Part shown: one piece after another, positions 6,201 to 63,100 of the stretch | Numbering within the stretch: position 1 is the stretch's first letter | How the letters are laid out: every line of letters starts with the position of its first letter | Assembly (NCBI GenBank): GCA_024362935.1 | Contig: JANCRA010000003.1 | Span: 47,591,844 to 47,655,843, forward strand | Source: Setophaga petechia | Lineage: Eukaryota; Chordata; Aves; Passeriformes; Parulidae | DNA length: 64,000 nucleotides | Reading direction: 5' to 3' | Position numbers and translations under genes: made by a program | Notes under the pieces: model-generated | What the model was told of the DNA's origin: nothing | The model's input: the letters and a program-made list of their open reading frames with translations, nothing else | Database searches by the model: none

Positions 6201-9148
6201 GAGAGCCGGGGCTGACACACATACACACATTAGCTGGCAGATCTGGCAGCTGCAGAGTGATCCCAGCCACTCTGGGGGACATGGGGGCTGAGAACACGGA
6301 CAGCACATGGGACAGCTTGGCACAGTTCCTGGCTCCCCCCCCCCACAAAAAGCCCAAGGGTCCCCCAAAACCAGGGCACAGCAAAACCACCATGTGACAC
6401 AGGAGCCTCCAGGAAGCCAGAGGCAGGGGGAAAAGAAATGAGCCCCATCTCCTGACAAAGGTGACCTTTCCCAAATGAGGGTGAGCTCCCCTCAAATGAG
6501 GATGACCTCCCAAGACCAGAGAAAGGCTCCTGAAGGACACCCAGGAAAACACAATCCACCAGCTGTTCGGGCTCAATGCAGCACAAAATCTGCTAGAATT
6601 TGGCTTTTCCAGCCCTGTCTCCAGATCATGGTCTGGGGGATCCCAGGGAACCCCACTCGTTCCCAGTACCATCCTGCAGCCCTGTCCCCATTTCTAGGAT
6701 GTGTGAAACCCACTTATTTGCCCTCCTTGATGTCCCCAAGGTGCTGTAAGCCTCTCTTCCTACAGCTTGGACTGAAAAAAGGGAGGAAAAGAAAACTAGA
6801 GATGCCCTGAATCCACAAAAATGATGCAATGCACAGCATGATGCCAAGCATCTTGGATAACAGCAGCAAAGAGCTGGGATAGGACCTGCTGTCCCCAAGC
6901 AGCTCCTGGCAGTGTCATTCCCATCACAATCCAACTCCCTTTGCTTTTGCCACTGGGAGAAAGCTGCCAAGGAAGCAGTTATCCCTGCGGATCACCCAGA
7001 CCATGTTTTTCCATTGCCCTTTGAAACGTGAGAGGGGTTTAAATCTGTCAGTGCTACAAGACACCAGGGCAAAGAAATCCCAGTGGGATCCACACTGGGG
7101 CTGGTCCCACTTCAACCCTCCTCTCTGTGAAAGGCAGCAGCCACTGGAGATGCTGAGTGCCCTGTGGAATGCCCACTGGTCGGGCACAGAGAGTGGAAAA
7201 CCAGGCAGTGGGCACAGTGCCATGCCCTGATGCTGTCTGCTTGGCCCTGGTGGCTTCCTGAGGGCAGCAGGGGCAGAATTCCTGCCCCCAGGTCCCAGCC
7301 ATCGGTATCCCGGCCGGACATCCCCAGTGCCGCAAGAGCCGGGGAGAGAAATAGGTCAGATGAATCATTTCCTCCGAGTGCCTATTTTGGGCCTCCATTT
7401 TAAGAGGCAGCACGTCACACTCCACACTCTGGCGCCTGAACTGACCATGTCCAACACCACCGAGAATGGGAACTCTGTGCAGAGGGAAGAATCCCACCCC
7501 AAGCCCCCCGTTCTGCCCACCAGTCCCAGCACAAAGGAGCCAGACAGCAAATTGGAGCAAAGCCCTGGGGAGAGGGGAAGCAGAACAGGGAGTAGGAAAA
7601 TGGGGACATGCTTTTCCAGCTCTCCCTGCTCCAGCTGATCCAAAATACCCCACAGGACCCAGGTGTGGAGTCCCATGTACACCAGGAGAGACTGAGAAAG
7701 CAAACACATGCCAGAACAAGGCTGGGACACAGAAGGAGAGGGGAGCAGGCTGGCACTAGAAAGGAGAAGCTGCAAACAGAAATAAAGGCAAGGGAAGAGG
7801 CAGAAGACAAAACTGTCCCTGAAAATATCTTTAATGTGGAACTTAATTCAGCAGTGCTGAGAGGGAGCCTGGAGCAGGGAGCTCAGGATGCAGGGAGCTC
7901 TTCCCTTCCAGCATCTCTAAAACATGAGGAGCGGCAAGAAGAGTGCAGTTCAGCCCCTAAGGTTCCATTATAACCACACATCCATCCCAGAAGCATTATG
8001 TGGGAATCCCAGCAGCCACAGTGCCCTGCCCAGCTCCCCAAGCCAGCCATACCCACCCAAAATCCTCTGCCTCTTCTCCGTGGCGCTCAGGTTGAAGATG
8101 TTGGTCTGTTGCCCTGCATCTGGGCGGTAGTATGTCTCGATCTCAATGGAAAACTTCTCCACGAAGGGACACGTGTACCTGGAGGGGCACAGGATTGAGC
8201 CCAGGGGCATGGCCAGTCCTGCAGCCCACCCCGCCGCCTCCCAGCTCCCACCTGGTGCGTGTGTAGGGATAAGCATTCCAGGACTCCTCCTCCACCTGGA
8301 GCGCGGCTTTGGGGAGCAGAGCCCGGAACCAGCTGGGGATGTGGGAGCCAACGTGGTAGATCTTGTGGGTGTACTGGCCACTGCCCCCAGGGCCATCGCT
8401 GTAGGGCCGGTTGGCCAGGATCTCCACGCCGCTGCCCTCGCCACTCGACTCCTCCCGGCTCTTCTTCTGCACAGAGACAACGGCTCAGTGAGGCCTCTCC
8501 AAGCCCCGAGACCCCACCCCCACGGGCGCCCAGGGTCCGTGTACACTCCTGCCCCATGTGCCGGCATCCACCGGCCCCACACCTGCTCACAGCACCCCCA
8601 GCTTGGCTCGGTTGTCCCAAACCCACCCGAAGCCTCAGTGAAATCCCTGCAACCTGCAAGAGTGATCCCTTGGGATCAGCCTCAGACCCCGCCGTGCCCC
8701 TCCAGGCTCCATGCTCAGCCCTACAGCTCCCCAGCTCCCCACACTCTGACCCACAGCCCCCTTACACCCTCCAGCACCCCATGCTCAGCCTCATAGTCCC
8801 CTGTGCACCCTCAGGCTCAGCCCCTGCATCCCTCATGCCTCCCCACAGCCCTCTACACCCCTCAGGCTACACTCTCCAGCCTCTCCCAGCCTCCTGCACC
8901 CCTTCAGTCACAGTGCCCAGCCCCACAGCTCTGTGCACCCCCTCAGGCTCAGCCCCACAAGCCCAGATCCGTGCTGTCCCCGGGCTCACCCCCCAGACCC
9001 CTGTATCCCCAGCTCCCCTGCTCAGCCCCGCAGCTCCCCCGAGCCCTCACGCTCAGCCCCGCATTCCCACCTGGATCATGTACAGCTGGGCCACCTGGTA
9101 CTCCTCCAGGCTCATGGGCAGCAGGATGTGGTACTCCTTGATCAGCAT
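299..9148 (-). CDS. PITPNM1: PITPNM1 (Nir2), phosphatidylinositol transfer protein, 5' 20 coding exons (3' end off window)
   Basis: Moves phosphatidylinositol and phosphatidic acid at ER-plasma membrane contacts. Coding exons in order: 9071-9148, 8252-8466, 8057-8178, 5471-5695, 5084-5398, 4629-4724, 4414-4521, 4244-4305, 3929-4173, 3240-3429, 3029-3136, 2793-2935, 2387-2565, 1909-2079, 1563-1712, 1315-1463, 1131-1241, 880-996, 541-689, 299-443. They sum to 3078 nt, or 1026 codons, of about 1240 in human. The start at 9148 gives [18 protein letters not shown], the conserved PITP N-terminus. The PITP domain occupies the first five exons. An FFAT core (EFFDAHE) that binds VAP spans the 4629/4521 junction. 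The DDHD region lies in the exons from about 2565 to 1131. The LNS2 domain begins near 996 and reaches [15 protein letters not shown] before the window ends. The donor at 298 leads to missing 3' exons. Positions 1-298 are intron. Intron 3 (5696-8056) holds a CR1 and nothing else recognised. I recognise the family clearly; single-base exon edges are hand-read. Confidence 0.96.
3465..3850. repeat. Tandem repeat, period about 115-120 bp, PITPNM1 intron
   Basis: About four diverged copies of a unit containing 'acttgctcacccaggatg', 'accaggagttac' and runs of 'cccatcc' lie between the exons ending at 3429 and starting at 3929. No coding signal. Period and copy number are estimated by eye. Confidence 0.6.
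4795..5015. repeat. Degenerate minisatellite, PITPNM1 intron
   Basis: Four to five copies of a unit of about 40-50 bp share 'gggagatctg' and 'ggtcacccagagtccctcc'. They fill most of the intron between the exons 4629-4724 and 5084-5398. The copies are diverged, so this is an old local expansion. Confidence 0.6.
5860..6100 (-). mobile_element. CR1 LINE 3' fragment in PITPNM1 intron 3
   Basis: Reads as the reverse complement of the CR1 3' end: 'gaatcatagaa', then 'ttggttggaagggacctt', 'ccctgccatgggcaggga' and 'cagcctgtgtcagggcctc'. About 240 bp, 5' truncated as is usual for CR1. Confidence 0.85.
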
Positions 9149-14000: not shown

Positions 14001-14539
14001 CCGCAGTGCCGACGGTGGCGGGACCCCTGAGCCGAGGGGCCGGGCGGGAGCTGCGGGTCCCCCTCCGGCCGAGACCGTGGCGCCGGGGGGTGCCCCGGCA
14101 GGCTGGGGGCGCGGGGCTGCTAGTACCGCGCCGCTGCGGCCCGCGGAAGAGGAAGAACATCCCGCCCGCTCCTGCTCCTTCTCCTTCTCCCCACGACCGG
14201 GACCGAGCAGGAGGAAACCAGATCGCCCCGGACCTGCGCCCGTCCCTCGCAGGGACGAGGCCACCGCCGTCCCCGGGACCCGCCGCGGAGCGCAGGAGAT
14301 CGGGTGGAGCGCAGCGACCCCCCGGGGCGCTGGGGGGGGAGCGGGGCGCCCCGGGGGGCTCCGGGGGGGGCTGACAGGGGGCTCCGGTTTCAGCACCGAA
14401 ACCCGACCCGGGCCGGGCGCGGGGCACGTGCCGGCCCGCCAACAGCCAGGCCACGCCCCCTCGGCGCCCCGAGCCCGCCTTGTGACCGCGCCCCCCGCTC
14501 CGCCCCCGCCCCCTCGGCGCGGCCCCGCCCCAAACCTAC

Positions 14540-14653: not shown

Positions 14654-16980
<2,327 letters not shown>

Positions 16981-28126: not shown

Positions 28127-31100
28127 TCATGTGCTCGAGGCTGTTTTCCTCCGCTTCAGCCGTGACCGCCAGTCCTCCGGCAGTGCCTCGAAGTTGGCAT
28201 TCCTCTCAGCCATGCCACTGCAGGGATAAAGCAGAATGTCAGCACCCAGCTGGCTCTCTGATGGATCCCCCACCTTTACAAGGGACCAGGAAATGTCCTG
28301 CTGCCAGCCCCCAGGGTCTGTACCTCATCAGCTGCTGCTGCTTCCACTCCTCGATGCGCCGCTGGGCTGTGGTCTCCCGGTCCTCCTCGCTGGAGCTGGA
28401 ATTCTCCTCCTCATCCAGCTCCCGCTGGATACTCTGCCACTTCTTCACCAGCGATGGCATCTTTGTCTTGCCCTTCTTGCCCTGTGCCACAAAAATAACA
28501 GTGGTGAGTGTGGCTGGAAAGGGAGGAGCGAAGGAACGGTGTCGGTGTGAGACCATCCAGCCTACCGGCCTACCTTGTCCTTGCGCCCCTTCCTCGGCTT
28601 CTCCTTCTCCGGGGGCGGCGGCGCCTTGGGGGTGGGCGGTGGGGGCGTCTGTGGGGGTGGTGGGGGCGGTGGCTGCTCAGCCGCAGTGCCCGTGGCTGGC
28701 AGCGCTCCCCGTGCTGGCACCGGCTGCGTGGTGGCAGTAGTGGCCGGGCTGACAGGCACGGCGCACTCCGAGTATCCCATCATGGAAGGCGCGGCAGGTC
28801 CCGCCACACCCAGGTAGCTGGACTGCAGCCCCAGTGCCGTGGGCTGAGGGCCAGCATGGCTCGGAGCCATGCGGAGGTTGGGGCGTCCCTGGATCTCGCT
28901 CTGGAGGCGCTGGCGCGGCCTTAGGGAAGCCAGGGGCACGGCTGATGGCTGGTACTTGCCCGTGGCCATCAGGGGCTGGCTGTAGATGACGGGGCAGCTG
29001 CCAATGGTGGCCGTGCGCTGCATCAGCCCCGGGCTCATCTCCACTGCTTTCCTCTTCTGTGGCTTGGCCGAGAGCAGTGGGGCTGGGCTCGGATCGACAG
29101 TGGCCTGGGAAGAGTGTGCTGAGGTGAGTGTTGAGCCAGGAGCACCATCACATGCCCATTTCCCAGAGTCTCACACTCTGGAATCAGTGGAGCCCTGGAT
29201 CCAGTGCTCACCTGGCTGCTGCTGGCAGCAGGGCGCACCAGGGACTTCAGGGGAGCATCCTCCTCTGTTCCTGGGGCAGGCGGCTCCTCACCCCCCTCAT
29301 CTTCCATCTCCACTTCCTGGATCTCCCCATCTTCTCCAGGCGGTGGAGGTGGTGGTGGAGGCGGCGGGGGTGAGTCTGGGGGAGGTGGAGGTGGCGGAGG
29401 CATTTCCAAAGGCAAGGGAGGTTGGAGGACTGGGACGGAGGACTGAAGCAGAGTCCAAAATGGAGTGAGCGGCATAAGAGACGTAGCAGGAACTTGGCCT
29501 GAGAAGGATTCTTTACAAAGGGAGCCTGAAGAACAGATATTGGACACAGTCTTGAATGCACAGCCTACAGTCTGTACCACCTGCTCTTGCCCACGGTCCC
29601 ACTTGGAGGCACCATCACTGTGGACTGCCCCACCCCGTGCTCTGGGGCCAGGACCCTCCCTGCCAGCGAGGCGTACCTGCAGGGCGCTCAGCGGGCCCCT
29701 CGGCGTGCTCTCCTTTGTCTTTGGGAGGTGGCTTTGGAGGACTGTCGGGTTTTCTGTCAGCGGTGCCTCGCTGTCCCTCCTCTTCGTCCTCCCCATCGGG
29801 GAACTCCCACTGCGACTCTCCCGAGCGCTCGTTAACATAGAAATAGCGTCTATGCTCCCTAGATCACAAGAAAGAGAAGGAGGCTTCAGCTTCCCTTCTC
29901 CGCCCCCGACACTCCAAGGCGGGCCTGCCCACGACAGCAGTGCGCTCTCGCAGGGGAGACCCTCGTGCAGCAGGGCTGCCGCTCTCCCACACACAACAAA
30001 CAACTTTGAGGACAGAGGCAGGAGAGGCCCGAGCCGACTCGCTCAAAGCTATTTGCTATCGCTGGCTGTGGGAACGTTGCCCTGAGCCCCCCCGCTCCGA
30101 GGGAGAGGAGGGCCAGAACGCTGGCAACGTCTCGCTAACACTGGGACTTTCAGCACGGCCTTGGCTGAAAGTCGCCCTCCGAGAAGAGGCACAGGGGAAC
30201 AGCCCAGTGGAGGAAGTGGCTGCCCCCCTACCCCATGGTGCGCAGAGTTTTTTATGATACTCTTGGTGTCAAACACACAGTGAATGCTAGAGAGAGGGAG
30301 CGGATCTGGGAGCTGAAAAACAAAAGAGCAAAGATTTCAAACAAAGGAAAATTAATCAAGAAAGCCAAATAGACAAAGAAATGTTTGGGTCTGACCTGCT
30401 GGCAGGAGACAGAAATCTTGTTCTTCATTCCGTCGGTGAGTTGAAGTTTGTCCTTTGGAAGAGCTGTTGGTCAGAAGAGTTGATCCAGAGATCCTGCAAA
30501 GTTCACAGAGCTCTCGCATGCGCGACCCCCCAGGCCCGCCCTCCACAGCGCTGGACACTCGCGAGAGGCACAACCAGCTCTGTCCGTCAGGGAATCGGCT
30601 CCGTCGCAAAGCACTGGGCACTCCATTTGGATCCTCCACTTTGGCGGCCGGCCCAAACTCTGCGAGTGCCGGACGTTTCTCTGCCTGCCCAGCACTAACA
30701 GAAGCCGCTCTCAGTCTGCCAGAGGGACGGCGCCAGCGTCGTCGGGTGGTTGATGGTCACAAATCATGTCTGAGATGTCAGAGATGAAAGGTGAGAAAGG
30801 AGGAGAGCGCGTACCTGTCCCAGTGGCAGGACCAGCCTTTAGGAGTGGCGTTTATTTCGTATTGTTTAAGCTGTTCGGCTGCGTCTTGGAGTTTGCGTTT
30901 GAGGTAGTTTCCATTGAGAGCACCTTCTCGCCAGTCTGCAATGCGGGTCTAGAGGGCAAGAACCGGGGGAAGCCGGTGAGGTGGGCTGCCGGGGCCCTGG
31001 GGGGGACGGGACTCGAGGATCGGGAGGCTCCCTTCCGGCACGGGACGCGGGGGGCCAGGAGGAGAACACCCTGCCTCCGCGCCAAGCCGCGCTCTCCCCC

Positions 31101-42100: not shown

Positions 42101-45100
42101 TGGATACTGAGCTCTCAGTACTTCAAAAAGGGCTCTGGGCACTGTGCAGAATGTCATGGAATCACAGAATGGTTTGGGCTGGAAGGGACCTTAAAACTCA
42201 TCCACTTCTGTGGGCATGGACACCATCCACTAGACCAGGTTGCTCCAAGCGCTGCCCAAACTGGCCTTGGACATTGTCAGGGATGGGGCAGCCACAGCTT
42301 CTATGGGCAACCTGTGCCAGAGGCTCAGCACCCTCACAGGGAAGAATTTCTTCCCAACATTCCATCTAGCTCCACCCTCTGTCAGTCTGAAGCCATTCCC
42401 CCTTGTCCTGGCACTCCATCTCTGGTCCAAAGCCCATCTCCAGCTCTCTTTAGGCACTGAAGTGACCCTGAGGTCTCCCTGCAGTCCTTGTAAAAGCACC
42501 TCTACACCCCTCTGCTATCCTAAGAGGATTTGTACCCCAAAAAGCACCAAAGGAATGATTAGGATTTGCTGACTCTTCCCTGCTCCCTTGATTGTGCTTA
42601 TGTCCTTGATACCATTGTCCTGCTCCTCCTCCTCCTCCAGATGTTAGATAATATTTGGGAACTGCTGCTGCTTTGCCTGCCAGGCACACACCACAAAAAA
42701 AAACCCTCTTCAGAAAAAGCAGGTTTAAAAATACCTGACCTTAAATTTTCCTACTGGAACACTGAGGATAACCTGATCCCACATCCTGGGCTGTAGCAGA
42801 CACAGGCAGAGCTTATTCCAAACAGGATTTCCAAAGGCACAAACAGCCTTGAAAAACTAGAAATTGCCTCAAAAAGCTGGTCTTGTTTTAAATTACAAGT
42901 TACATCCACTGAAAAAAATGTTCTGTAAAGGCATCAAGCTGTTAGAAGCAGGCACAGGAGCTCCTTGGGGAATAGCTGTTCGCTTGGGGAAATTGCTGTA
43001 CTCCTTGGGGAATAGTGGCAGCGTGTTGTTGGGAGACACTGAGAAAGTTAATGACCTTAAAATCCCACAAATTATTGATCTGGTGGAGGCAGGAGCTGCC
43101 CTGAGCCATGTCCCAGCTCCCATGGGAGCTGCAGAGAGGTTGTGGAAACTCCAGAGGCACGGGAAGGACCAGGACTGGGCACTTACTGGGAACAGCCATG
43201 CACTCCCCATCGTGGCTCCTCTTCGGGGACGCTCCTGGGCGCTCATACTTGCAGGAAAAAGCAGAAAGAGGATTTATACCCACCTGGTTTCTGAAGGATA
43301 AATCACTGATAGAATAAATCCCAACAAGAGCTCTCCATTTCAAGCTTTGATTTGGACCAGGGAAGCTGTGCAGTCCCTTGGGAATTCAGGCTACTTTATC
43401 CCAGGCTATCAGGAACATCAAGATCAGGTAGCAAGGCTGCAGCCACCATCTCCCTGAGTCCTGACTGGGATTTGAAACACAGCCCCTGGGATTTGAAACA
43501 CAACACTAACTCTCTTCTGGACTGGTATTCCAGCTGTTCACACTCCCCAAAACATCTGCTGTCTACAGCACAAGGTGATATATTCCCATATCTATCGACC
43601 AGCCCATTCCCAAAAGCTATCCCATTTCCTCCTGCCCTAAAAAACGGGGAATAGCACAAGCGTGATGCATGGGGTCAATGAGCAGAGCAAGACAGCCGGT
43701 TACAGGCAGCAGATAAGAAGTCCAGTGTCTCTGTTCCCATCAGAAAGGATTCTGGAAGTTCCTTTTCAGAAAGCTCAGCATTCTTACCACAGCCCCAGAG
43801 GCCGGCTGCACTATCCAGGCGTATTCCGGGCGGATCAGCCGCAGGCAGTTAATGGCAGCCAGGAAACAATTCCCCTGCTTCTGGAGCCCCCGCAGCGTCC
43901 GCACCTCCCTGCCCAGCCGCATGCCATACTCAAACATCACTGTTCCAGCTGAAAACAGGGAAAAGTCATCAGCCAGCAGCCTGGGGAGAGAGACCACACG
44001 GCTGGCAGGGGCAGGGAAAGGGTGTCCCAGGAGGTGGGCAGGTACAGGTGCATCCCAAGCTTTACCTTTCCGGTAGTTGTGCCGGTACACGTGGAAGGCG
44101 TAGAGCAGCTCGTAGTAGTTGTGAGTCATGAGATCCACGGCCCGAGCATGGGACTCGATGATCCCAACGACCTGCAGCACACAGAGGTTCCAGTGGGTCC
44201 ACAATCCCCTTAAAAGGAGGGTTGTGCCCCTCCCAGTCATGATCCCAGTACAGGATTACCTCATTGTGCAGGTTCACGTAAGGAAATTCCACCAGGTCCT
44301 GGAGCTGGGATCGCTCGCAGAGAACCACCACTAGCTGGCGTAAGCAGTCCAGCTGCCTGCAGAGGGAAGCACAACCCTTTGGAGGAGCAGGAATAAACCC
44401 AGGAGCAAGAACAAACCCGGGATTTAAGCCACAAACAACCACTTTGTGACAAGCTCCTGCTTCCGGATGAGCTCTGCAGGTTTTTTCCTGGCTTAGAATC
44501 AACTTAAACCTTCAAGTTTCTCCTGTACTGCAAACAGAGATCCTCTGGAAAGGCCTCTCAGGAGGGCAGTCTCCCTCCCTCAATTAGTTAAAAAGCATTG
44601 CTATTTCTCCCCCGTTATTCCAATATTTTTCTCTGCTAGGATAAAGCTCTCCCTAGCCAGTTCACTTTCCAAACTGAAAACTCAACACAATCTTTTTATT
44701 AAGCAAAATCAACTAGGCTCCTACAGCTTTTAAACATACAATGCTACACACATAATCCTTATGATACTTCAGTCTCTTCCCTGCTTTTCTTCCTCCCATT
44801 TTCCTATTTTGAGAAGATGCCAATCCCAGGTGTCCTTCAAATAGCACCCAAAAATGAACTCTACATTTTTAAAGCCACCTCTACACATTAACTAAACACA
44901 GCAGTCATGCCCTCCTCTAAAGTGTAATTTTCCATTCAGTTTCATGGGAAAATGGGACCATGGACCTCCACAACAAAGGCATAAGCCTGTCACCTACCTG
45001 CCCGGATCCGGGTTTTGTGTTAAGGCTACATAGGCTTCACTGTTGTGCCCCAAATCCAAGTGATGTTTGAAGATGCAGGTCCTCAAAGTAGCCTGAAAAC

Positions 45101-48100: not shown

Positions 48101-51100
48101 GCCCAGACAGGGATAAAGCTGCACATCACGTGGAGCTGCAGACAAGGAATTGTGCGGGTCAGAACTCCAGCACAAGCAACTCCAGCTGCCAAGAGCACAG
48201 GGAGAAAGGTGGAAGAACAGTGATCTGAAATACAGCAGTCTAAAAGCCCTGGAAATCAGGAGTTCACTGTCCCTGCTACTGGGATGCCAGGAATGGAATG
48301 ATGACAGGCATTTCTCACACTGTTTTTTTATTAATAAGGACATTTAAGAAATAAATTGGTCCTTTTTGGACTGAAGAAATCTTTCTGAACCCAGGTCCCA
48401 CAGGCAATCACAGGCAGAGGTGGTACAGGAAAGGCTGTGGGCACACCAGCAGCCAACAAGCTCCAGGATTGCTGGGATATTTAAACAGGCTCTGCAAAGA
48501 TGTTTCAGGAGCGCAGTGTCACGCGGCCAGACAAGCCCTGGGAGAATAAACTCCTCCATGGAAAGGGAATAGCATAAACCTGAGTATCTGGATGCTCTTG
48601 AAAATAGATGAAAGAGAAAATGCAGAAGGTGATTCCCCCATGGCAGGGGAGTGGAATGAGATGAGCTTTAAGGTCCTTTCCAACCCAAACTGTTCTGGGA
48701 TTCCACAATCTTAAATCACTCCCCATCAAACACTCTGTCCCAGCTCAGAGAACAGTGATTAGGGGTAGTGGTTTTAAACTAAAACAGAGGAGATTTACAC
48801 TGGATATTGGGAAGAAATTCTTCCCTGTGAGAGTGGGGACACCCTGGCACAGGTTGCCCAGAGAAGCTGTGGCTGCCCCATCCCTGGAAATGTCCAAGGC
48901 CAGTTCGGACAGGGCTTGGAGCAACCTGGGATACTGGACAGTATCCCTGTCCATGGTAGGGGATGGAACTGAATGAGCCCTGAAGGCCCTTCCAACCCAA
49001 ACCATTCCAGGATTTCATGACTAGGGGAAAGCAGAACTCCAGCACTTGGAAGGATGATGTTTTGGGGAGCTTTCCAGCACCTGTGAGGGCTGGCATGATG
49101 CACTCACCTGGAGCTGGGTGTACTGACAGCTCCCCATCAGGCACTCTGGGAAGAGGAAGCTGGGATTGCTGGGCCATCTGAGCAGAGGTTAAGGAACACA
49201 GGAGAATCCAGTCTGGAAGCCAACATGCCTCTCATGCTCCCTTTGTGGGGGGAAAGGAGAGAAGATTAAGCTGCTCTTTATACAAATCATTATTCTGTAA
49301 TAAGATTTATCCATATTAGAACAAAATCACCAGTACATCTAATCCCCAACTCCTGTTACCCTTCCAAATCCCCCAGCATCCCACCCCACCAAGTCAAGTA
49401 GTGAGAGCTTAGGGGCTTAAAGTCAAAAACTCAAATCCTTTATCGTGCACCTAAACAGGATGAAATCTGTGAAATCTTAAAATACCCACAAATCCCATTA
49501 ATGCCAACAACCTCACTCCTTCAGGAGGTTTGTCTTGGAAAATTGGAGGTGGAAAACTGATTTTAGAATGGCAGGAGGCTCAGTGGCAATGGATTCACAG
49601 CCAAGGATACAGGAGAGGCAGAAAATCAGTCACTATTGAGGTGATAAGGTGGGGCCAGTTCAAACTTGTCTCAGCCAAAGAGGTGTTTGGTTGCAGGAAG
49701 AGTCGGGATATGATGTGTTTTCTGGCCACTTCCTGAAAGAAGAGCTCCACAATTGTTTGAGGACCGGACACTAAAAGTAGAAATGAAAGGAACAGTGAGT
49801 AGAGAGCCTGCAGTAGAGATCCCAGGTTTTCCACCCTGTCCTGTGCTCATCAGCCCAAACAGCACAGATTAAACCAGGGCAAACCAAAAGCACGTTCCAC
49901 ACTCCAGCTTGTTGGTTTTGGATTTCTCCTGCCGTCTGGTTAAGTCAGAGGGAGCAGCAGGAGATCAAAGTGCCCCATCCTGCAGTGTTTATTAACCACA
50001 GCTCAATTAAAACACACAAAAAAAGGGCTCTGCTCCCTCTCCACTTGTTATTCCCAGCCCAGCTGCAGCTTTCCAACATGACAGGGCTGAAGGAGTGCTG
50101 AGCTGGCTGTTCCTTTCCCTCCCTCCTCATTCCAGCATCCCAAAAATCCCCCCTTACTGACTGTTCCCAACGCCTCTCCCTGAGCTTCACATATTTCTCC
50201 CCAAAGAACAGTGGCCAAACAGGACTTTCCTCATGAGCCAGCCAAGAAATAACCCACAACACCAGCACACACAAAGGATGTTTTCAACTCCCCTGACATT
50301 TCCAGCTGCCTCCTGCACCCAGACTCACCATCAGGGAGAGCTCAGGCTCTGAAAATCACCCATGTCAGAAAGTGGAGGAAGCTCTTTCCCAGCTCACATG
50401 TGGAACTGCTGCCTGTTTGTCCCAGATTTCCCCAGCTCCCTCTGAAGTATCTCAGCCTCCAAGTGCTGACTAGTCACAGCAGGCTCTTACCTGCATGTTT
50501 CCTTCCCATCCCTGTTCACCTCCTCCCTCTGGAACCACTTCAAGGCCCACATTTCCCTAATTAAGCAGTCTTCTAGTCTCCCAATAAAAAACTAACCCAA
50601 AAGTTACATCTTTGCAGCAGAACATAAAAAATATGAACCAAATATAAGCTGCAATATTTTGGGGAGGTATTTCCATATTTTTAAACACATTTTGAGCAAG
50701 TACTTCTACATTTTCATGCTTCCCTGAGCTGCTGCTCTTGGTTGCTGTAGGGTAAAGGGTGGAAAGTAGGACAGGTTGGATGGAACAGGTTGCTCTGAGC
50801 AACTCCAGCTAGTGAAAGGTGTCTCTGCCATGGCAGGGGGTGGAACTGGATGAGCTTAAAGGTCCTTCCAACACAAGCCACTCCAGGATTCTGTGACAGA
50901 CCTGGTCTGAGCTACTACAGCCACTGTAAAGTATGCGAGGGGTAAGTTTGGCTGACGCTGCCAGGGTGAGAATGACAAATTTTTGGCTGAGTGAGGCATT
51001 CCCATCCTTCTCAGGCTGAAAGTAAAATCAGAGTTCAGTGCTCTCAGATCCTTTGCTGTTGCTTTGTTGGTGTTTTTTTTTTTTTTTTTTTTTTGTGGAC

Positions 51101-54100
51101 AGCCTGACAAACATCCCTACTTAAATCAGGGTCATTCAACCACACAGTCCATTAGCTCCCTGCATAAAGCACTTCCCTTAGGTGGCAGAGTCAGGTTTAA
51201 ATAACTGAAAGGGAGAGTTGATGATCCGTGGACACCTTACCCAGTTTGTGTGGTGTCAGAGCCGTGGTGTCTGCTAACTCCAACACAGAGAGATGCTGCA
51301 GATTAGATTCCCTAGGGAAGAAAGAAGCCATCAGTGAAGAGACAATAAAACGCCTCCCGCTTTAACTGTGCTCATTGTTCAACTCCTACAGAGCACAGAA
51401 CAGCGAGGCCTCACAGGGCAGATTTAGCACAAGGCAGAGTCAGCTCAGAACATGTAAGGGGAAAAAAACCCCTCCCCAGTGCTCCTGGAGTGATACTCCC
51501 ACAGCAACCACCTGCCCTCCACATCAGGAAGGGCATTTCAGGTGGATTAAGGAGGACTCAAAGCCAGGTCAGGTAGAGACTCACAGCGTGTCCACGGGGA
51601 CGTCGGAGGCCAGGCACTGGCTCGCCCACCGGATCAGGAAGTAGGACAGCAGCAGGGGAGAGGTGCGGTGCAGCAAGTCCTGCTGGGACTGGAAGAGCTG
51701 TCCCCCTCCCAAAACCATCTGCAAGGAAAGTCCAGAGCTTGGCACACTTGAGCAACAGCAGGACAAGGGCAACCAGAGAGGTTTGTGGCAGGCCCAGCTT
51801 GTCCGTTCTGTGAACAGTTAGGTGCTCGACAGCCTGGCAGGAACTCAGCCCTCCCAAGGAACCAGCAGGAACTCTTGCCCCATGTCTGGAAGTGTTCAAG
51901 GCCAGACTGGAAGGTGTTTGGAGAAATGTGGCCTAGTGGCAAATGCTCCTGCCCATGTGAGGGGCTTGGAATTAAATACTCTTCAAGGTCTCTTCCAACC
52001 CAAAGCATTCCAGGATTGTTGTGCCTGAGACTGAAATCATGGCTTTGCTGCAGAGATCACCTTGGAGTGTCCATAAGCTCCAGCAAAGAGTCACAGGAGA
52101 TGAAACAAGCCAAGCTTTTGAAGGACACAGGTACATCAAGGTGGAAAAGCAGCAGGTCACATGCCTCATGGTCTGGGAGAGCCCAGCTCCAGAGGGCACT
52201 TTGCAATGCACCTTAAATGCTACCAGGATAACCTTATCCAGGAAAAAGGGATTTATTGTCAACCAGGAAACTGCTGGCTATTTCTAAGTAAATAATATTG
52301 GTTTAAACAAGGCTGTCCTTGTCTAGGGACTTGTTCCACATCGCTGTGTCCATCCAAAGCAGCAGCACCTTGCCTCACGTGGCCTCAGGCCGGGTGGGAC
52401 AGACCCAGACCAGTCCATCCCACCATTCCAAACACAGCTACCCTCGTGGGGGCTGTTTGCTCTGGCTGGAGCAGCTTCCAAGGGGCTGAAACTGCAACCT
52501 TGGAGTGTGCTGCCAGAGAATGGAGCTGCCATTGCTGCTGGGAGAGGGACAGGGGACAGCTGGAAGAGCTGCATGAGTGCTGATTCACACAGGAGGCTGG
52601 AATCCATGCCCTCCTCCCACAAATACAGCTTGGCTTCCTGCTTCCTGGATGTTCACAGAGGAATAAAGGGAATTAGGCTGCTTTGCTTAGGAAGACAAAA
52701 GCAGCTGGAGGAGAAAGCAGGACCTGCCCAAGCCTCGGGCTATTCCAACAGCCTTGTGAGATGAGACAGAGCTCCGCCCAGCACCAGAACCCCACGGGAT
52801 TCCCAAGCGCCAGGAGCTGTACTCACGGGATCTCCGAGGCGCAGCAGGAGTTGCTGGAGGATGAGCAGGTCCCGGCAGAGAAGGAAGCGCACGGTGCAGA
52901 TCTTGGCCACCCCCCCGCACACCACGTGCGCCGCGGTGCTGCTGCCGAACAGCTGGGACAGGCTCATGCGCAGCGCCAGGTGAGGAGCTGAGGGGAAAAC
53001 CACCCAGGTGAGGCAGGAGCCACACAGGCAGGAACCATTCCCAGGATAAAGGACACTTCCTAGCGTCTCCCAGAAGCTGGTGAAGAGCTTTCACCTCTTT
53101 CCATGTCAGCGTCTGTCTCGTAGTCCATCTCTCGGATGAGCAATCCAATGGCATGGATGGGGTTCCTGATCTCTTGCAGTTTGCTGTGGATATCCTCCAT
53201 CACATTTTCCCTGCAACATCAAAAAGATCCTCCTCATCATCATGAACAGCAACCTAGGGTTCCAACTGAAGAGGGCTCCCTTACACTCCCTTCCAGTGAG
53301 GATCAGTATCTGATCAGCCTGGACATTCCTAACTGGAATCCTTGGCTAGCCTGTGAGTTTTATTACAGCGCCTGCAGGGACCAGTCTATTTATTCCACTC
53401 CCTCAGGCTACCAGGAAATAACAGCCGGATAGCTGGCATTCCACAAGGAAACAATTTCGGTTAGCACAGGAACCAGACAGGACCACAAGGTCTGACCAAG
53501 GCTCTGATCTCTCCCTTCTGTCTCCAGGCACTTCTTTTCACACCTAACAGGAATTTGTGCCTTTTCTGCTCTCCAGGTTGTGGATGGAACACCCTGCTAA
53601 CAACTCCAAACCATGGTCCCCATCTAGAAAAGTCTGCTGCAGCACAGGGCAAGGAGCCCACACATCTCAAACGCCCTTGGATGACAGGCAGGGACAGCTC
53701 TGGACAATCCCAGCTCAGCCACTCTGAGAAGCTTCTGGAAAACCTATCTCCTTACGTGTCATTAGATATCAAGTCCTCCAGGATCTGCTCTGCAGCCTTT
53801 TCTGGAGGCTGGAGGCGGGAGCAAGCCATTTCCATGATGAATGCCATTTCCATAGATATTGATTCTCCAATCAGGCGAAGGCACTGGACAAGACAGACAA
53901 CATCACGAGACATCTCCAAATCTGCAATGAAAGAATCTAACTGTGTATTTTCCAAGAGATTTCCAAGGGAAGGTGGGAAGACCATGCAAAAGCCAGTTAG
54001 TTCAGCTCCTATCACCAGTAACAGCAGACGGGTCCCAGTTCCCTGTGCCAAACCTTCCCCAATAACAATGAGGCTGAATTAAAGCTCACGAGTCAACAAG

Positions 54101-57100
54101 GGAAAGATTTGGGCTTTATAATTCAGAAAATAAAAAATGATGCAACAATAAAAAAATGAAATTCCCTCTAAGGGATTTTTTCCAGCCACAGGTTGAAAGA
54201 AAAAAAGCAGCGCAAAAAAATATATCCTGAAGAAAATGGCTCAGCTCAGCTCTGCAATCCTTTATGGGTCAGATTTTAAATTAAATCCCATTTTTTGAGA
54301 CCGTGACTGTTTAAACAGCCAGGGGAGGAACTGCTGGGGCTCCCCATCCAGCTCAGGCCTCCAGTTTTCCTTCCCTCTGCTCCACAAAAAGCTCAACCAA
54401 ACAGATGACGATCCCACTTCATAAAAATATATAAAAATCACTCAAGCATGAAAGCGGAGCTTAGGTAACATTTTCCATTGCCTTTTTTCTTAGTGAAACG
54501 GCATTCCAGGGCCAGCAAAGCACAGAGGGCACTGTGGTGACACTATTAATTACATGTTTTCCATACTCTGGCATTCACTTCCTGGAGACAAGGAACAGCA
54601 TGGCCCCTTTCCACAGCTGATGTGAAAACATTTCATAAATCCTGGAGCTGTTTGGGTTGCAATGGACCTTAAAGCCCATCCAGTCCCACCCCCTGCCATG
54701 GGCAGGGACATCTTCCACTATCCCAGACTGCTCCAAACCCTGTCCACCCTGGCACCGGCCACTCCCAAGGAGTGTCCACAGCTTCTCTGGGCACCTGTGC
54801 CAGGGCGTCCCCACCCTCACAGGGAAGAATTTCACCCAACCCAAACAATTCTATTACTCTACTGGCAGCCTTGACACTATTTTTTAATTGCTGGTGTGAG
54901 CATGATGGCAAATTTCACAAAATAAGTACCCTGCAAAGCCAAAATCAAACTATTTTCATGCAGCTATGGATCAGGAGCTCTTCAAGGGATCTCTATGGAG
55001 ATCTCTGCCAGGAGGGGAGAAACTCCATGTATTCTCACCTTCAAAGATGGCAGCATCATCCTCAGTCAGGAGGTGCTCATTGGAGAGGAGATAGAGATGA
55101 TCAACCAAGGAGCAGGGCACAAGGAAGGACATGGAGCCCTGAAAGGTGAGGAGAAAGTCCTTGAGCTTCCCAAATCCTCTGGAGAAACTTGCTCAGGGAA
55201 TCTCACCACCACCCAGACTCACCTTCTTTAGCAGGCACACCATGCTGGTGTAGGGGTTCAGGTGCAAGGCCAGGGGCCGGGAAAGAGCTTCCTGGTACTG
55301 CAGGCAGCAGGCATAGAACTTGGACCAGAATTCCACCTGCAGCTGCCAAAACTCCTCTGGAGAGCACTCGTATTCTGTAACACTGCCCTGGAACTGGTGG
55401 GGGCAAAACAAGGGAATGAGCAACAGCCAAGTGAAATAAGAGCAAGATAAAACAAGGGAATTCAGGCCCAAAAAAGAACATAGGGATCTCTCAGGTAGGT
55501 CTCTTAATAATTATTATTTGGATTATTTGGAAGATAATCCCTCTATTTTGGATTCTCTTCCAAAATGATGAGCAACTGTTCTGCAGGGTGGTGGTCTGGG
55601 CACCATGTGATGGGTGACCAAAGTGCACACAGGGAGCAGAGGCAGAACAGCGAAGATTCCAAAAACCCAAGAGGGAAAGAAAACCCCAGGCAGGAAGGAT
55701 GAAGACTTGTACTTTTTTAAAAAAAGTTACATCATTCCCTTTGAGAAAGAAAGGATAAACCAAGGTGTGGGGTCACCTGGCACCTAAAATATCATGACAT
55801 CATGTACAACACAATATTCTGGAAGGAAAATCCATCTCACCTCATTTTCCACAGCTAAGGTGACCTCTTTCCTTAACTCATCCCACGTCAGATCCACGTG
55901 TCTCTCAGTTCCTTGAGAAAAGATCTGCAAAGCAGCATAAAGAAACTTGGATTTTAAGGCAAAATAAAAGTCTCACCAAAGGTTCAAACAGCACTCAGTG
56001 AGGTAAAGCAGGACAAGAGCATCAGTCAGCACTTTGTGGGATGGAAGTGTTAAAAAAAAAGATCTGGTTGCTAAATTTGGGATACAAGGATGTGTGGCAG
56101 TGAGCAACCACCACACCTCAAGGGATTTAAACTCCAGGTGATGTGGCATTTGGGGAGATGGATTAATGGTGGTCTTGGCAGCACTGAAGGGAACTGTCAG
56201 ATTCCACCATCTCAGAGAGCTTTTCTGACCTTAGTAATTCCATGACACATTCTGACAAACAGCACCACAGGGCGCTGAGCCCCCATTCTCCTGGTCACAT
56301 CAGCAGGAATGAAAAACAAGCTCATCAACTTGCTGTGCTATCCAAGGGGGAAAAAACCAATTATCTGGATTCCAGGTTCCACCTCCAGCTGTGGGCACAC
56401 AGCCGCTGCAGCACAGCCCAGCAGCCACCAACTCACTCCAGGGAGTCCCCATGAAAACATGCCTGGCAAGAGCTCCAAGGAATCCTGCTGACTCACATCT
56501 AAAGGGCCAGGAAGAGGATGAACAGAGAGCATCCCAAATTCCCTCTCACTTACCTGCAAAGCCTTCTGGATAGCTGCATTAGTGAACCGGCCCGGCATGA
56601 AGAGATATTCCAAGTAGATTTCCTGCAAAAAGATCGTGACTTCAGGAAGCTCAAGGATGAGGAGAACATTTAAGCTGCTGTTTCTGGTCTTTCCTCCCAT
56701 TATCAACATCATCCCCTGGAGCTGCGTTTCTGTCCACACCCAGCTCCAACCAGGGATCAAAAATGGCTTCCTGCACACTCCTGACGTTGTTTGTTCCCAT
56801 TCTCTCTCCCGAGTGACCTCGCTGTTTTCCGTGCTGTTCTACAGGTGGCTCACCCTGGGGTCCTGGTCCTGCCGGACTGTCACCTCCTCCTCAGGGAGCG
56901 GCTGCACAAACACCTGGTTCCACTGGCCAGCAACATTCCTGGAAGGAAACAAACCTGGAATCGGCTTGGCATCCACCTGAACCAAACCAGTGGCTTTCAT
57001 CAGCAAAACCAGCCCTCTGGGTGTGGAAAAGGAGGTTTGTGCAGTGACAAGGGACAGATTTTGGCAGGAGAGGTTAACTGTGGCATACCTAGCTACAAAC

Positions 57101-60100
57101 TGATGGAACATGTTGGAATCCTTCATTTAATTCAACATTCTCCCCATCTCACGAACAACTCTCAGACTGACTAGTACCTTCTTCTCCTAAAATTTGCACA
57201 CTCACAGCATTTTTCATCCATTCTTCAACTCCCTGGCTCTGTACCAAGCCATCCTCTCAGCTTTATACTCAGGGATGATCCTTTCCCATCACCATCTCCC
57301 CAGAACATGTTTCTTCCTGGAAGGCACCACCTGGTTGTTTTGAAATAGCTGTGGGGAAGCACAACGTTCCCTCTGCCACGCTCAAACTCCATTTTCAGCA
57401 ATCCTGCTGCCTGGATTTTCACATTTTCCATGTTCTGGCAACTTGAATATAAATCTTTAAGTTGAGGAGCTCTGTCAAGGTTTTCTTGCAGTCATCCCAG
57501 TGATCCATGCCCAAAACTCACTGCTCAAAGTTGATGTATTTCACAACAGTTTGGTTCTCCTCGTTGTGCCACAGTGCCCAGATCTCAGCCGAGGTTAAGG
57601 CAAAGTCAACCAGAGTCTCCTAGGAAAGAGGGAAAGAGCCAATTTCCTTTCTTATCCACAAATTAGAATACAGCCGAGAAAGATGGGTACTTAACAACAG
57701 CAAAACATTCCCCTGTGGAATTTAACAGGCTTTGGGAATTGTTCAGTCTGGAAAAGAGAAGGCTTTGGGGTGAACTAATTGCCCTTCCAGTACCTGAAGG
57801 AAACCTGTAAGAAAGACAAATAGGGAATTTCAATAAGGGCTCGGAGTGACAGGAAAAGGGGGAACAGCCCCAAACTGAGAAAGAGGAGATTCAGATGGGA
57901 TATTGGAAGCAATTGTTCCCTGTGAGGGTGCTGAGGCTGCCCAGAGAAGCTGTGGCTGCCCCATCCCTGAAAGTGTCCAAGGCCAGGTTGGACAGGGCTC
58001 GGAGGAACCTGGTCCAGTGGAAGGTGTCTCTGCCCACAGCAGGAGACTGGAACAACAAGAGGAGCTTTAAGGGGTTCCTTCCAACCCAACCATTCTGTGA
58101 CTCTGTGATTTAAATCCCAAAGTCCAGGACTCTTCCTCCTGGGGGCTAGGCCCCAGCTCTCACCTGTGAGGAGAACAGGGAGGAGATGTGGTCAAGGCTG
58201 TAGCGGTTGCTCTCAGTGCTCACCAGCTGGAAGACACAAAACTACAAACACACCTCATAAATAATTTCCTGAAGGACTAAACCAACACATCTCATGGAAC
58301 ATCATCGTTCCAGTCCATCTCCCTGCCTGGTGCTAGGGGTAACAGAACTTAAAGAGGACAAGAAGGGTGAGCTGAGCACACCACTGGACTCTCTGCACAG
58401 AAATCCTGGCTTCACCCTTCTCCCCAAGGACACTCATCCCCGCCTGGACCCAAAGGACTCCCAAGTCTTTCCAAACACTAAACTTGAAAAACTGTAAGAC
58501 CACCACACCCAGCACTACCAATGACCACAAGATGTGGGAAAAGAAGGGGACTAAGGTGGGAAAACCCCAATTTCTCAGCTGCAGGCCCAGCTCTGCATGT
58601 TCTTCCCAGAGCAGAGCACTCATGGGACAGCAGGACTCATGTTAGACACTCTTGTTCTGTGTAGGAATTCCCTGGAGAAAGGGATAAGCTGTCCAACAGA
58701 TGAGCCTGGTTTGCGCCGTCCTGCCCCTCCTGCTAAATTTATCCTTCTCCACAAAAAGTTCTCCCCAAGTTGCAGAAGCATCCACACGCTCCCAGGAGCC
58801 TGGTGTAAACACACCACCAGCATTTCCATGCTTTTAGCTCCTTTTGGACCTTTCCTTTTCCCACGGCACATCCACGCTTTCAGAGCAGGAGGTAAACAAG
58901 TGAACCAGTCCTCCATGGATCAGCTCAGTCACACAGGGAATTCCACTCCCAGAACTCGGGCACAAATATCCCTCAATGCTGTGGGGGGAAAAATGTTTAT
59001 TTAGAAACCACCAATCCCTCCAGAGGGTCACACGTGAAACTTTTCCCTATTTCTTGCCTTCCAAACCCAAGTCCTAGGGGAATGACTCCTCTTCCCAGAG
59101 CCTGAGGAGTCCATGGCTCCATACCTGCCCTCGCTTGGGAGCGTGCATGTAGACTCCCAGGTAGAGGCCCAGGGACTGGGAGAAGGCCAGGCGCAGGCGG
59201 TGCCCGGTGCCGGCCGCCAGCCGCAGGTCCCTGCTGACCGGCATGAACTCCAGCAGATCCGCCACCATCAGGCACATCTGATCCTGCAAACAACAAAAGC
59301 ATCAGGACAGCAGCTTAGGAAATACTCTGGATTGAGAAACTGGTCCTCTCCTTCCCCCTTCCAGACAACATCTGCCCAGAACTTTGCACAACACATGTGG
59401 ATTATGGCTCCATATGCTTACCTGAACCACTCCTTGGCTTCTCCCAGCTCACCTGGGCCCCCTTCCCACCAATCCCACGGGCTGCCAGAGCCCAGGCATG
59501 TAGGAGAAAGCTTCCCCTCCCTCCCACAGCACATTCCAGTGCCACTGAGCCGTGAAAGCACCGTGCTGCTCCATTAGCTCTGGCACTCAATATCTGGAGC
59601 AAGAGGCTTTTATTAACTTCCTATTGACAAAGACACTTTCATTACTGCTGAAAGCAGGAGAACATCCATTTGGGATGGCTCCTTGGGCCTCAAAGCACTC
59701 CTGCCGACCTTCCCCAAACACTCCAGTAGGTCTGGAAACAACCCTGAGCCCAGGATTGTGTACGTTGCAGTAGAGACGGCCACACATACATTGCATGATG
59801 ATACACACAGTATCACCATACAGTATCAGAAGCTTTCAACCCATACACAGTAACACCTTACCACACCAGAAAGTGACTGCCCGTACAGAGTAACACCATC
59901 TCACCTCAGAAGGTTGCAAGCATCTGCCCTTCTTGTTCTTTAGCCCAACTTTTCATACCCCTCATGTCGATGCACTGCACCTGTGTGCCCTCTGTTCCCT
60001 TTGGTGATTGGTCAGCAACACCTCAGCACCCCATGGCTCATCACCTCCAACACTGCTCACAGCTGCAGCCCATTGGGGATGGGGCTCAGCTGCAGCCCCA

Positions 60101-63100
60101 CTCCCAATTCCCACAAACTGTGGGCCTACAATTCCCTTTTTTTTTTACATATAAATGCTATGTCTACTATTTATCTACAGGGCCCTTGCAGAAGAAATAG
60201 TAAACATGGTACAAGTATCTGTTTTGTAGGTTCCACCAACTCTAGAATGCATCCCTGTAACAACCTTGACTCACTCTCTGAACTTGCATATTATTAAAAT
60301 CTTTATACTTACATTTATAGAATATTGACAATTTCAATAGCAACATACAAGAATAAGCCAAAGGCCAAACACCAAGATATCAACAAAATCAACAGCTATA
60401 CAATTCCCCCAATAGCTATACAACTTTTAACCATATTAATAATTATACAGCTATATAATTCCAAGTTATAATCCTTTTACAATTTTTAATAAAATAACAG
60501 TGAGATCAGTGTAGAATGGATAAAATGCAAACACAACCCTTTGTCTGCATACAATGTAAACACATTTACAAAACTAGATCTAATGTGGATAATATGCAAA
60601 CACAACCATCCAGTAATAAAAACAAATTCCAAGGCAGAACATTGACTAAGCTGCAAACAAAGTCCAGCAAAATGGGAAACACCAGGAAAAGTTGAGCTCA
60701 AGTCACCAGGTTGGTTGAGGGCTCTGTCATTTCCACAGCTGGGCTCCCTCATGCCATTTCCATCTACCCAAACAAGGATGATTATTCACACAGAGGATAC
60801 GGAATCACTCCATCCAGGCAGCGTGCTCTGAATTTCTCCCTCTGGGAAACCTGCTGGTACCAGTGCTTGCACTCAAAGACAGCAGGGTCCCCTGAGCAAC
60901 AGTAGGGACTCAACTGGCTGGATGACTGCAACTGAGTATTGCTCTTTTCCATAGTGCTCCTATCCAGGGAGCAGTTCCTTCCCACAGTGCACCTTGGGTA
61001 TTCCAATATGCCCTCCACACACTGTAGTTAGGAATACTTGGGTCTTCCAAATATCCAGGTTTACAATGGAATTCAGTATAGTCACCTGTGGAGTACAGCT
61101 TGGTTTATTCAACCCATTTCAGCTCAATATTGTTTCTGCCCATATCTTCTTCTGATGCTGTACAGAACACCAGGCAAATTGGGGGGCTTGTCCACTGTCC
61201 TCTAAGACAGATGATTGTTGGAGATCCTTTCAAGATACAGAAATTTGGATGTTTGCATTCCACAGCATCACCGTGTTGATATTCTTGCAAGAAGACAAGC
61301 TCTGCACTGAGAATAGCAAGAGGTGTGCCACATCCCCCAGCTTGTCCTTTGCACATTGGCAGCTCTGTCCAGGTCTTTTCCTAACTTCTTTCCAAACACT
61401 AAATGCAGTACCTGCATCACTCTTAAAATCTTATGACTTTGTCCATAGTAAAACTCTATAAAGAGCAGAGTCAGTAGTCTCAATTCCTTCTCTTTTCCAC
61501 AAAGCTTTCCATGTAGATAAAACACTCTGTTCTTCACTTGGTAAGTTATTTCCCATTATGTCCTCAGCAGCTCAACTGTACCCCAGGTGTCAAAATCAGT
61601 CTGGTCCAGACCAGGCAGTTTCTCCTGCTGCTCTCACCACTAGGCTGGGCTCTGTCTCAGGCTGTACCTCACCCTACAGCCCAATCCTGAGTCACATCAG
61701 GGTCACCGTAGGTCACAACACACAGCACAGCACAGGCTGCAGCTGAGAGGGCCACTATACACAGAGTATCACCATACAGCATCAGGAGGCTCCAACCCAT
61801 CCAGAGAATCACCCTACCACATCAGAGGGCTTCAGGTATCTGCCCATACAGAGCAACATCATCTCACCTCAGAAGGCTGCAAGCATCTGCTTATCTGATT
61901 CTTCAGCCCAACCTTTCCTACCCCTTATTGGTGATGCATGGCACCTGTGAGTTCTCTGTTCCCTTAGGTGATTGGTCAGTAACACCTCATTACCTTCAAC
62001 ACTTCTCACCTGCTTTTCACAGCTGCAGCCCATTGAGGATGGGGCTCAGGCACAGCCCCACTCCCAATTCCCACCGTGTGCCTACAGCAATGAGGCTGGA
62101 CAGGAAACTCCACACTTCACAAATACTGCTACAAACACACACCATGACTGTTCTCACATATTGCCCCATATCCCAGTATGGAGAAGCCACAGCCACAATT
62201 TAAAGGGAGACAGATCCATGCAGAGTGCTCACCTGTGATTCCTTGGGCTTCGTTTTGCTCCCCCAACCCCAGGTTCTGCTCACCTTGTAGGACCACATCC
62301 GGAGCTTATGGTCCTGGCAGAGGGCGAAGAGGAAGGCATCGTGATCCAGGCAGTGCACGGAGAGGCTGACAGGCACATCCGAGGGGCCACCATCACCTCT
62401 GGAAAACCAGAGGTTACATCAACACCTTCAAAGAAAATTCTCCATCCCTGCAAGTGTCCAAACTCAGTCTGGACACTGGTCTAGTGGAAGGAGTCCCCCT
62501 CCCCCCCTAGGCAGGGGGTGGGACTGGACGAGCTTTAAGGCCCCTTCCAACCCAAACTGTTCCAGGATTTCATGATTCTAAAATCATGGCAGCTGCACAG
62601 ATCCAAGGCAGTGGGGTTCCTCCATTGTGCTTAAATCCAAATAAACCACTAGATGAGATCAGCAGAAGGGAATGTTTCAGCACCCACAGAGCAAGTGATC
62701 CCACCACACCAGTGACACCCAGTTCTTCACTTGCTTTGGTGGAATTGAAGCAGATTCCCACTTCCCCATCCCTAGTCTGGTACTTGCAAGACACAGGTGA
62801 AAGATCCAGAGGGAAAAAAGGATCCAAGCAGTCCTGGCATGAATCCTGCCAGCCTCTGACAAGGACCCAAGAAGCCATGAGCAAGGATCCTGACAGCCCC
62901 AGATGATACCTTAAGTCTTAGCTTTCATATTTTCCAGATTCCATACTGCATCAGTATAGAACTCTGAACTTCACATGAAATGTTAGCAAGTTCTCTTCCC
63001 AGTTTTGTTAGACAACACAATCCTTTTCTAGCCCAAGAACCAAGGACACCATTGCAGCTTCAGGCCCGAAAAGTAAACAAATAAACAGTAAAAAAGTAAA

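What the first reader, a model, noticed from the sequence alone, without database searches (positions are those of the whole stretch)
59759..62086. Avian endogenous retroelement that carries factor H-like complement modules in place of pol and env
Two LTRs, a primer site and a polypurine tract bracket an interior whose only recognisable coding content, besides a gag start, is tandem CCP modules. Their best resemblance is to the C-terminal modules of the factor H family, which bind host surfaces and C3b. Retroviral capture of host genes is established for oncogenes in birds; I know of no described avian element carrying a complement regulator. If it is a family, it may once have shielded particles or infected cells from complement.
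Basis: partly seen in the sequence, partly recalled or inferred. Interest (0 to 1): 0.93.

Follow-up and report, generated by a model that had tools for sequence, protein, structure and literature searches.

The report
Bird retroelement carrying factor-H fragment
An old, broken virus-like element in an intron, probably of a bird, carries a spliced copy of the tail of a complement-regulator-like gene; the same joint occurs in one other public sequence, so the capture looks real, but that it spread as a family or shielded a virus is not shown.

Summary
On the minus strand, 59759-62086 is a short provirus-like element: two LTRs (about 80-83% identical), a tRNA-Trp-like primer site touching the 5' LTR, a purine tract beside the 3' LTR, a gag-like start, then an intron-free block with the end of one CCP module and three more modules up to a stop. 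The modules mostly match factor H/CFHR C-terminal modules best; coagulation factor XIII B, a related gene, scores higher as a whole chain for one piece. The element lies in a NUP160 intron, in the gene's direction. One database protein, P0001, carries the same gag-CCP joint from another contig, which makes an assembly error or two stray LTRs around a retrocopy unlikely. P0001 is closer to the window copy than the window's LTRs are to each other, suggesting the same insertion in a related species, not a spreading family. Both copies look broken. Best reading: an ancient LTR-mediated capture of a factor-H-family mRNA. Precedents exist (crocodilian ERVs with KIT-ligand and nectin3, PMC4299795); no complement cargo appeared in my literature listings. 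Shielding is untested.

The parts
61709..62086 (-). 5' LTR
   Evidence: 80-83% identical to the 3' LTR; starts TGTAGG, primer site follows directly
61691..61708 (-). primer binding site, tRNA-Trp type
   Evidence: 14 of 18, 2 of 2000 shuffles as good (tRNA end recalled)
61557..61690 (-). leader between primer site and gag-like start codon
   Evidence: position
61378..61556 (-). gag-like start (MGNNLPSEEQ...), one internal stop, same frame up to the joint
   Evidence: translation; motif recalled, no database match; the region is present in P0001, 46 of 55 residues in the +1 frame
61351..61380 (-). joint and tail of a CCP module (...TWTELPMC)
   Evidence: same joint in P0001
61174..61332 (-). 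CCP module resembling factor H CCP19
   Evidence: phmmer to CFH chain residues 1077-1166, 51.2 bits over 61105-61380; module number recalled
60989..61164 (-). CCP module of factor H CCP20 type, broken by changes of frame
   Evidence: its middle piece alone matches complement receptor 1 (E 4.2e-4), CFHR2 E 0.56
60782..60973 (-). last CCP module with stop (...YPLCE stop)
   Evidence: CFHR2 E 8.2e-8, CFH chains from 8.6e-7
60147..60781 (-). A+T-rich non-coding 3' part (GC 0.35); viral or host 3' UTR, not decided
60132..60146 (-). polypurine tract
   Evidence: 15 purines, one base before the 3' LTR
59759..60130 (-). 3' LTR
59753..59758 (.). possible target duplication, left (GGATTG)
   Evidence: 4 of 6 with 62087-62092
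62087..62092 (.). possible target duplication, right (GCAATG)
62277..62403 (-). NUP160 exon upstream of the element
   Evidence: human NUP160 residues 276-314, E 7.4e-18
59119..59289 (-). next NUP160 exon, downstream of the element
   Evidence: human NUP160 residues 314-367, E 1.6e-24

Best explanation
An old, non-autonomous endogenous provirus captured the 3' part of a spliced factor-H-family mRNA. Shown: LTR - tRNA-Trp-like primer site - leader - gag-like start - joint - intron-free CCP block with a stop - non-coding tail - purine tract - LTR, in a NUP160 intron in the gene's direction, and the same gag-CCP joint in another public sequence. Inferred: reverse transcriptase, supplied in trans, copied a chimeric RNA (virus 5' end joined to host mRNA inside a CCP module, then back to the virus 3' end), and an integrase inserted it. 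At recalled bird rates of 2-3.3e-9 per site per year the LTR divergence gives about 30-50 million years. It has since decayed; a past protein function is possible but not shown.
For: Anatomy in order on one strand; CCP identity; two module borders crossed without an intron, in the open frames 61105-61380 and 60782-61027; joint shared with P0001: 46 of 55 residues on the gag side, 72 of 83 on the CCP side; NUP160 exons on both sides. Precedents: PMC4299795; LTR-mediated retroposition, also in chicken, as summarised in PMC5408686 (passages).
Against: The target duplication matches at only 4 of 6. LTR-LTR divergence is about three times the estimated window-P0001 divergence, which fits only if P0001 shares this insertion or the LTR distance overstates the age. 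The gag identity has no database support. P0001 as seen shows no LTR. The donor bird gene was not available, so intron loss rests on recalled one-exon-per-CCP gene structure, and the last but one module is not clearly factor H by its middle piece.
Confidence: 0.8

Rival explanations
1. A multi-copy family of complement-regulator-carrying elements spread through bird genomes and used the CCP protein as a shield.
For: A second sequence with the same joint exists, in a database where short searches gave no host factor H protein (full-length factor H was outside the length range that can be found). Its open frame runs from the gag region into the CCP block.
Against: 1 candidate and 1 hit only; it is closer than independent insertions of that age should be; it leaves the CCP frame in the next module; no relatives in 4 viral-contig scans or 2 genome-contig scans, although these are collections of viral and prokaryote contigs and say little about birds.
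Confidence: 0.15
2. A one-off LTR-mediated retrocopy of a host mRNA that never served the virus: dead on arrival at one locus. This is the passive version of the best explanation.
For: Both copies seen look broken; the CCP block is not in the gag-like frame in the window, nor, going by P0001's protein, there; P0001 looks like the same insertion.
Against: Between the copies the CCP side changed somewhat less than the gag side (6 of 77 against 9 of 55 residues, Fisher p 0.17): no real signal, but constraint is not excluded.
Confidence: 0.55
3. Two unrelated solo LTRs flank an older host retrocopy.
For: LTR identity of only 80-83% and an imperfect target duplication.
Against: Primer site directly after one LTR and purine tract directly before the other, in the same orientation; gag-like start fused to the CCP block in two sequences.
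Confidence: 0.05
4. The captured gene is the F13B chain or another CCP gene, not factor H.
For: F13B has the highest whole-chain score for 61105-61380 (E 3.8e-37 against 6.9e-33 for CFH), summed over repeated modules; 60910-61104 matches complement receptor 1 best, weakly.
Against: Best single stretch is CFH (51.2 against 47.0 bits); last module CFHR2 E 8.2e-8 against F13B 0.33; P0001 CFH 8.1e-48 against F13B 7.5e-39.
Confidence: 0.1

Closest known systems
Crocodilian ERVs with captured host mRNAs (CrocERV29 with KIT-ligand, CrocERV31 with nectin3; PMC4299795: sections 10 and 15 and passages seen)
   Same: Endogenous retroviral elements that hold a copy of a host mRNA for a surface or secreted protein.
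   Different: There several insertions and open frames under purifying selection are reported; here one locus plus one similar sequence, both apparently broken, with a complement-regulator fragment and hardly any viral coding sequence left.
LTR-mediated retroposition (Tan et al. 2016, seen only as summarised in passages of PMC5408686; original not held)
   Same: Host mRNA copied between LTR-element ends by template switching; reported for chicken among others.
   Different: Whether the chimera multiplied afterwards is undecided here.
Oncogene-transducing avian alpharetroviruses (recalled; RSV src is mentioned in PMC4299795, section 15)
   Same: Host sequence joined to viral sequence, with a tRNA-Trp primer site (recalled for that genus).
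   Different: Complement modules instead of a growth-control gene; membership of the genus cannot be tested, no pol or env was recognised.
Viral RCA homologues of poxviruses and herpesviruses (PMC5472698, passages)
   Same: CCP-module proteins encoded by viruses.
   Different: Those are DNA viruses with working genes; the passages seen describe retroviruses as taking up host regulators, not encoding them.
TguERVL2 elements with a herpesvirus glycoprotein C-like stretch in gag (PMC6523648, passages)
   Same: A songbird ERV with a foreign-looking domain in the gag region; glycoprotein C of herpesviruses binds C3b (recalled).
   Different: Weak similarity that the authors do not take as proven transfer, in another ERV class; no CCP modules.

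Membership tests
LTR provirus (endogenous retroelement) | two related LTRs with TG...CA-type ends | tested here: met
   80-83% identity, TGTAGG...CCTA / TGTAGG...CGTACA; the 5' LTR does not end in a clean CA
LTR provirus (endogenous retroelement) | primer site after 5' LTR and purine tract before 3' LTR | tested here: met
   the tract is telling by position, not by rarity
LTR provirus (endogenous retroelement) | target site duplication | tested here: inconclusive
   4 of 6; 4.6% of random 6-mer pairs do as well
LTR provirus (endogenous retroelement) | gag, pol, env coding regions | tested here: inconclusive
   gag-like start by motif only; 5 pieces scanned in Pfam, the rest of the open frames read by eye, no pol or env recognised
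Host-mRNA-capturing ERV | spliced host sequence inside the LTR-bounded element | tested here: met
   CCP block without introns; exon structure of the donor recalled
Host-mRNA-capturing ERV | several insertions share the same joint | tested here: inconclusive
   one other sequence, P0001, more likely the same insertion
Factor H family | CCP modules related to the factor H C-terminus | tested here: met
   Sushi in P0001 at 26.2 bits, cut-off 20.7; window pieces below cut-off
Factor H family | N-terminal regulatory modules | tested here: not met
   only 328 bases lie between primer site and block, read as leader and gag-like sequence
Factor H family | signal peptide for secretion | not tested
   no signal-peptide program was run
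Alpharetrovirus | tRNA-Trp primer site (recalled as typical) | tested here: met
Alpharetrovirus | pol/RT phylogeny | not testable with these tools
   no pol recognised in the element

The most novel reading that the evidence does not exclude
A lineage of bird retroelements carried and translated factor-H surface-binding modules, perhaps from a frame overlapping the gag start that is open in both known copies, and used them to dock host complement control on particles or infected cells: a retroelement with its own complement-regulator gene, of which my nine literature searches listed no example.
Probability: 0.13. Interest if true: 0.9.

Novelty: new member of a known kind. Interest (0 to 1): 0.6.

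Why it matters
Complement-regulator homologues are known from poxviruses and herpesviruses, while retroviruses are described as borrowing the host's proteins (PMC5472698, passages). A retroelement that took up factor H modules would show that retroviral capture reaches complement genes, and an old insertion in an intron of a conserved gene can be dated and compared across birds.

Tried and rejected
Further copies in the window's own genome: the genome search did not complete; 8 of 8 identical requests returned 'busy'. No relative in viral contigs with two CCP pieces, one LTR pattern and P0001 or in genome contigs with one CCP piece and P0001. Protein searches: 2 of 3 found nothing, the third found P0001. 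No second copy of the element inside the window by blastn (only self and LTR-LTR matches). NCBIfam: no family for 4 of 4 proteins. Independent solo LTRs, F13B as donor and assembly error were considered and judged less likely.

Literature: 9 searches. Shown: 0 of 0, 1 of 1, 19 of 19, 20 of 208, 3 of 3, 20 of 265, 20 of 33, 12 of 704 and 15 of 39 papers, as titles and starts of abstracts; none of those titles or starts names a complement regulator in a retroelement. The library holds open-licence PMC papers only.

I first read P0001 as proof of a family and dropped that: its divergence is too small. That test assumes neutral drift, uses minimal codon changes (17 of 396) with an assumed visible share of 0.74, and ignores that the search favours close relatives with open frames. 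P0001's first residue may be a start codon other than ATG written as M, so one of the 17 changes may not be real.
Full report
Observation. The stretch 59759-62086 was read on both strands. The signals lie on the minus strand. Two LTR copies are 83.1% identical over 331 columns (K2P 0.194), 82.1% over 346 columns at wider boundaries (0.208; 0.191 over 175 columns without CpG-prone ones), and 80.3% by blastn. Directly after the 5' LTR is a sequence matching the complement of the tRNA-Trp 3' end at 14 of 18 (2 of 2000 shuffles as good). Of the 17 other tRNA ends, recalled and of 7 to 20 bases, the rarest result was Leu with 411 of 2000. One base before the 3' LTR are 15 purines; such runs occur 15 times on this strand of the window, so the tract counts by position, not by rarity. 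Flanking 6-mers agree at 4 of 6, which 4.6% of random pairs do.

Setting. The element lies between two NUP160 exons that encode consecutive parts of the protein (human residues 276-314 and 314-367), in the direction of the gene. I take the host for a bird from the look of a CR1-like sequence nearby (recalled, not tested).

Interior. 134 bases after the primer site a start codon opens a gag-like frame (MGNNLPSEEQSVLSTWKALWKREGI...), with one stop, reaching the joint near 61378. No library recognised it: Pfam, PDB, the protein database, NCBIfam. Next come the tail of one CCP module and three more modules; the middle one of the three is broken by changes of frame. The last ends in a stop after ...YPLCE; the aligned CFHR2 chain ends two residues further. 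Pfam gave only matches below cut-off, in 2 of 5 pieces (Sushi_2 E 0.045 and Hemotin 0.12 in one, Sushi 0.13 in another). Sequence comparison with PDB chains is clear for two of the three CCP pieces: 60782-61027 (CFHR2 E 8.2e-8) and 61105-61380 (CFH best stretch 51.2 bits). The third, 60910-61104, matches complement receptor 1 weakly (E 4.2e-4) and CFHR2 only at 0.56. F13B scores highest as a whole chain for 61105-61380 (3.8e-37 against 6.9e-33 for CFH), but not per stretch (47.0 bits), not for the last module (0.33) and not for P0001 (7.5e-39 against 8.1e-48). The factor H family is therefore the likelier donor. Two module borders are crossed with no intron; in mammals each of these CCPs has its own exon (recalled), so the source was probably spliced RNA.

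A second sequence. Of three protein searches, the third returned one protein from one candidate, P0001 (141 residues, one contig of 1253 bases, source 'lgn', no name). Its first 55 residues match the gag region, read in the +1 frame, at 46 of 55, and from the joint on it matches the CCP piece at 72 of 83 (71 of 77 in the stretch compared). So the gag-CCP joint exists in other sequence data, with Sushi above Pfam's cut-off (26.2 against 20.7 bits). P0001 departs from the CCP sequence in the following module and ends there, so this copy too looks broken. No LTR of it was seen.

Family or one locus. The minimal nucleotide difference between window and P0001 is 17 of 396; with an assumed 74% visible share this is about 0.058 per site, against 0.19-0.21 between the window's own LTRs. 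Independent insertions of that age would give about 57 visible changes; 17 or fewer has P about 5e-10. Even the window branch alone (about 28) makes 17 unlikely (P 0.015). Hence P0001 is more likely the same insertion in a related species, or a later duplicate of it. This rests on neutral drift and on LTRs identical at insertion, and the search favours close relatives. On the other side, the same database gave no host factor H protein, so catching one single-copy locus by chance is somewhat surprising; but full-length factor H was outside the searchable length range. I leave the family reading at 0.15.

Mechanism. Most likely a chimeric RNA made by template switching was reverse transcribed from a tRNA-Trp primer and integrated by machinery supplied in trans (inferred). 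The joint lies just before the end of a CCP module, not at a module border, which favours switching during reverse transcription over splicing. The 635-base A+T-rich tail may be viral or the donor's 3' UTR. Age about 30-50 million years with recalled rates. Decay alone explains the present state.

Function. Factor H C-terminal modules bind surfaces and C3b (recalled); a captured piece could have been useful to a virus, but there is no room for the N-terminal regulatory modules, secretion was not tested, and both copies look broken. The +1 frame over the gag-like start is open in the window (61268-61555) and in P0001 runs on into the CCP block; I did not test this against chance, and the first residue of P0001 need not be an ATG.

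Comparison. Crocodilian ERVs captured KIT-ligand and nectin3; for nectin3 six insertions and purifying selection are reported (PMC4299795, sections 15 and 10). LTR-mediated retroposition is described for chicken among others (PMC5408686, passages). Viral RCA homologues are assigned to poxviruses and herpesviruses (PMC5472698, passages). In the main text of the cordon-bleu/zebra finch LTR paper 'captured', 'host gene' and 'complement' do not occur; it does report a weak herpesvirus glycoprotein C-like stretch in a songbird ERV gag (PMC6523648, passages). In the avian W-chromosome ERV paper 'captured', 'host gene' and 'complement factor' do not occur (PMC8310711). The nine searches, whose listings were partly capped, showed no complement regulator in a retroelement.

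Verdict. A real-looking, old host-gene capture with a cargo new to me; a new member of a known kind, with the family and shielding claims open.

Noticed in passing
62465-62580: Looks like the 3' end of a CR1 element (recalled), in the intron beside the element; suggests a bird host.
   Followed up: no
5875-6291, 15796-16182, 42234-42572, 48779-49231, 51634-52056, 54673-55149, 57775-58191: By eye, a similar stretch (...LCQ.LTTLTGKNFF..., in one frame or another) recurs in open frames across the window: a dispersed repeat that I did not identify.
   Followed up: no
12294-36570: By eye, open frames resemble CABP, NDUFV1, NUDT8, AGBL2 and FNBP4 (recalled, untested); with NUP160 this would mix genes that in humans lie on both arms of chromosome 11 (recalled).
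   Followed up: no
61268-61555: The +1 frame over the gag-like start is open in the window, and in P0001 it runs on into the CCP block and holds a hydrophobic stretch; chance not excluded.
   Followed up: partly
14375-14461, 28832-28914: ARAGORN calls tRNA-Thr and tRNA-Pro here; possibly spurious.
   Followed up: no
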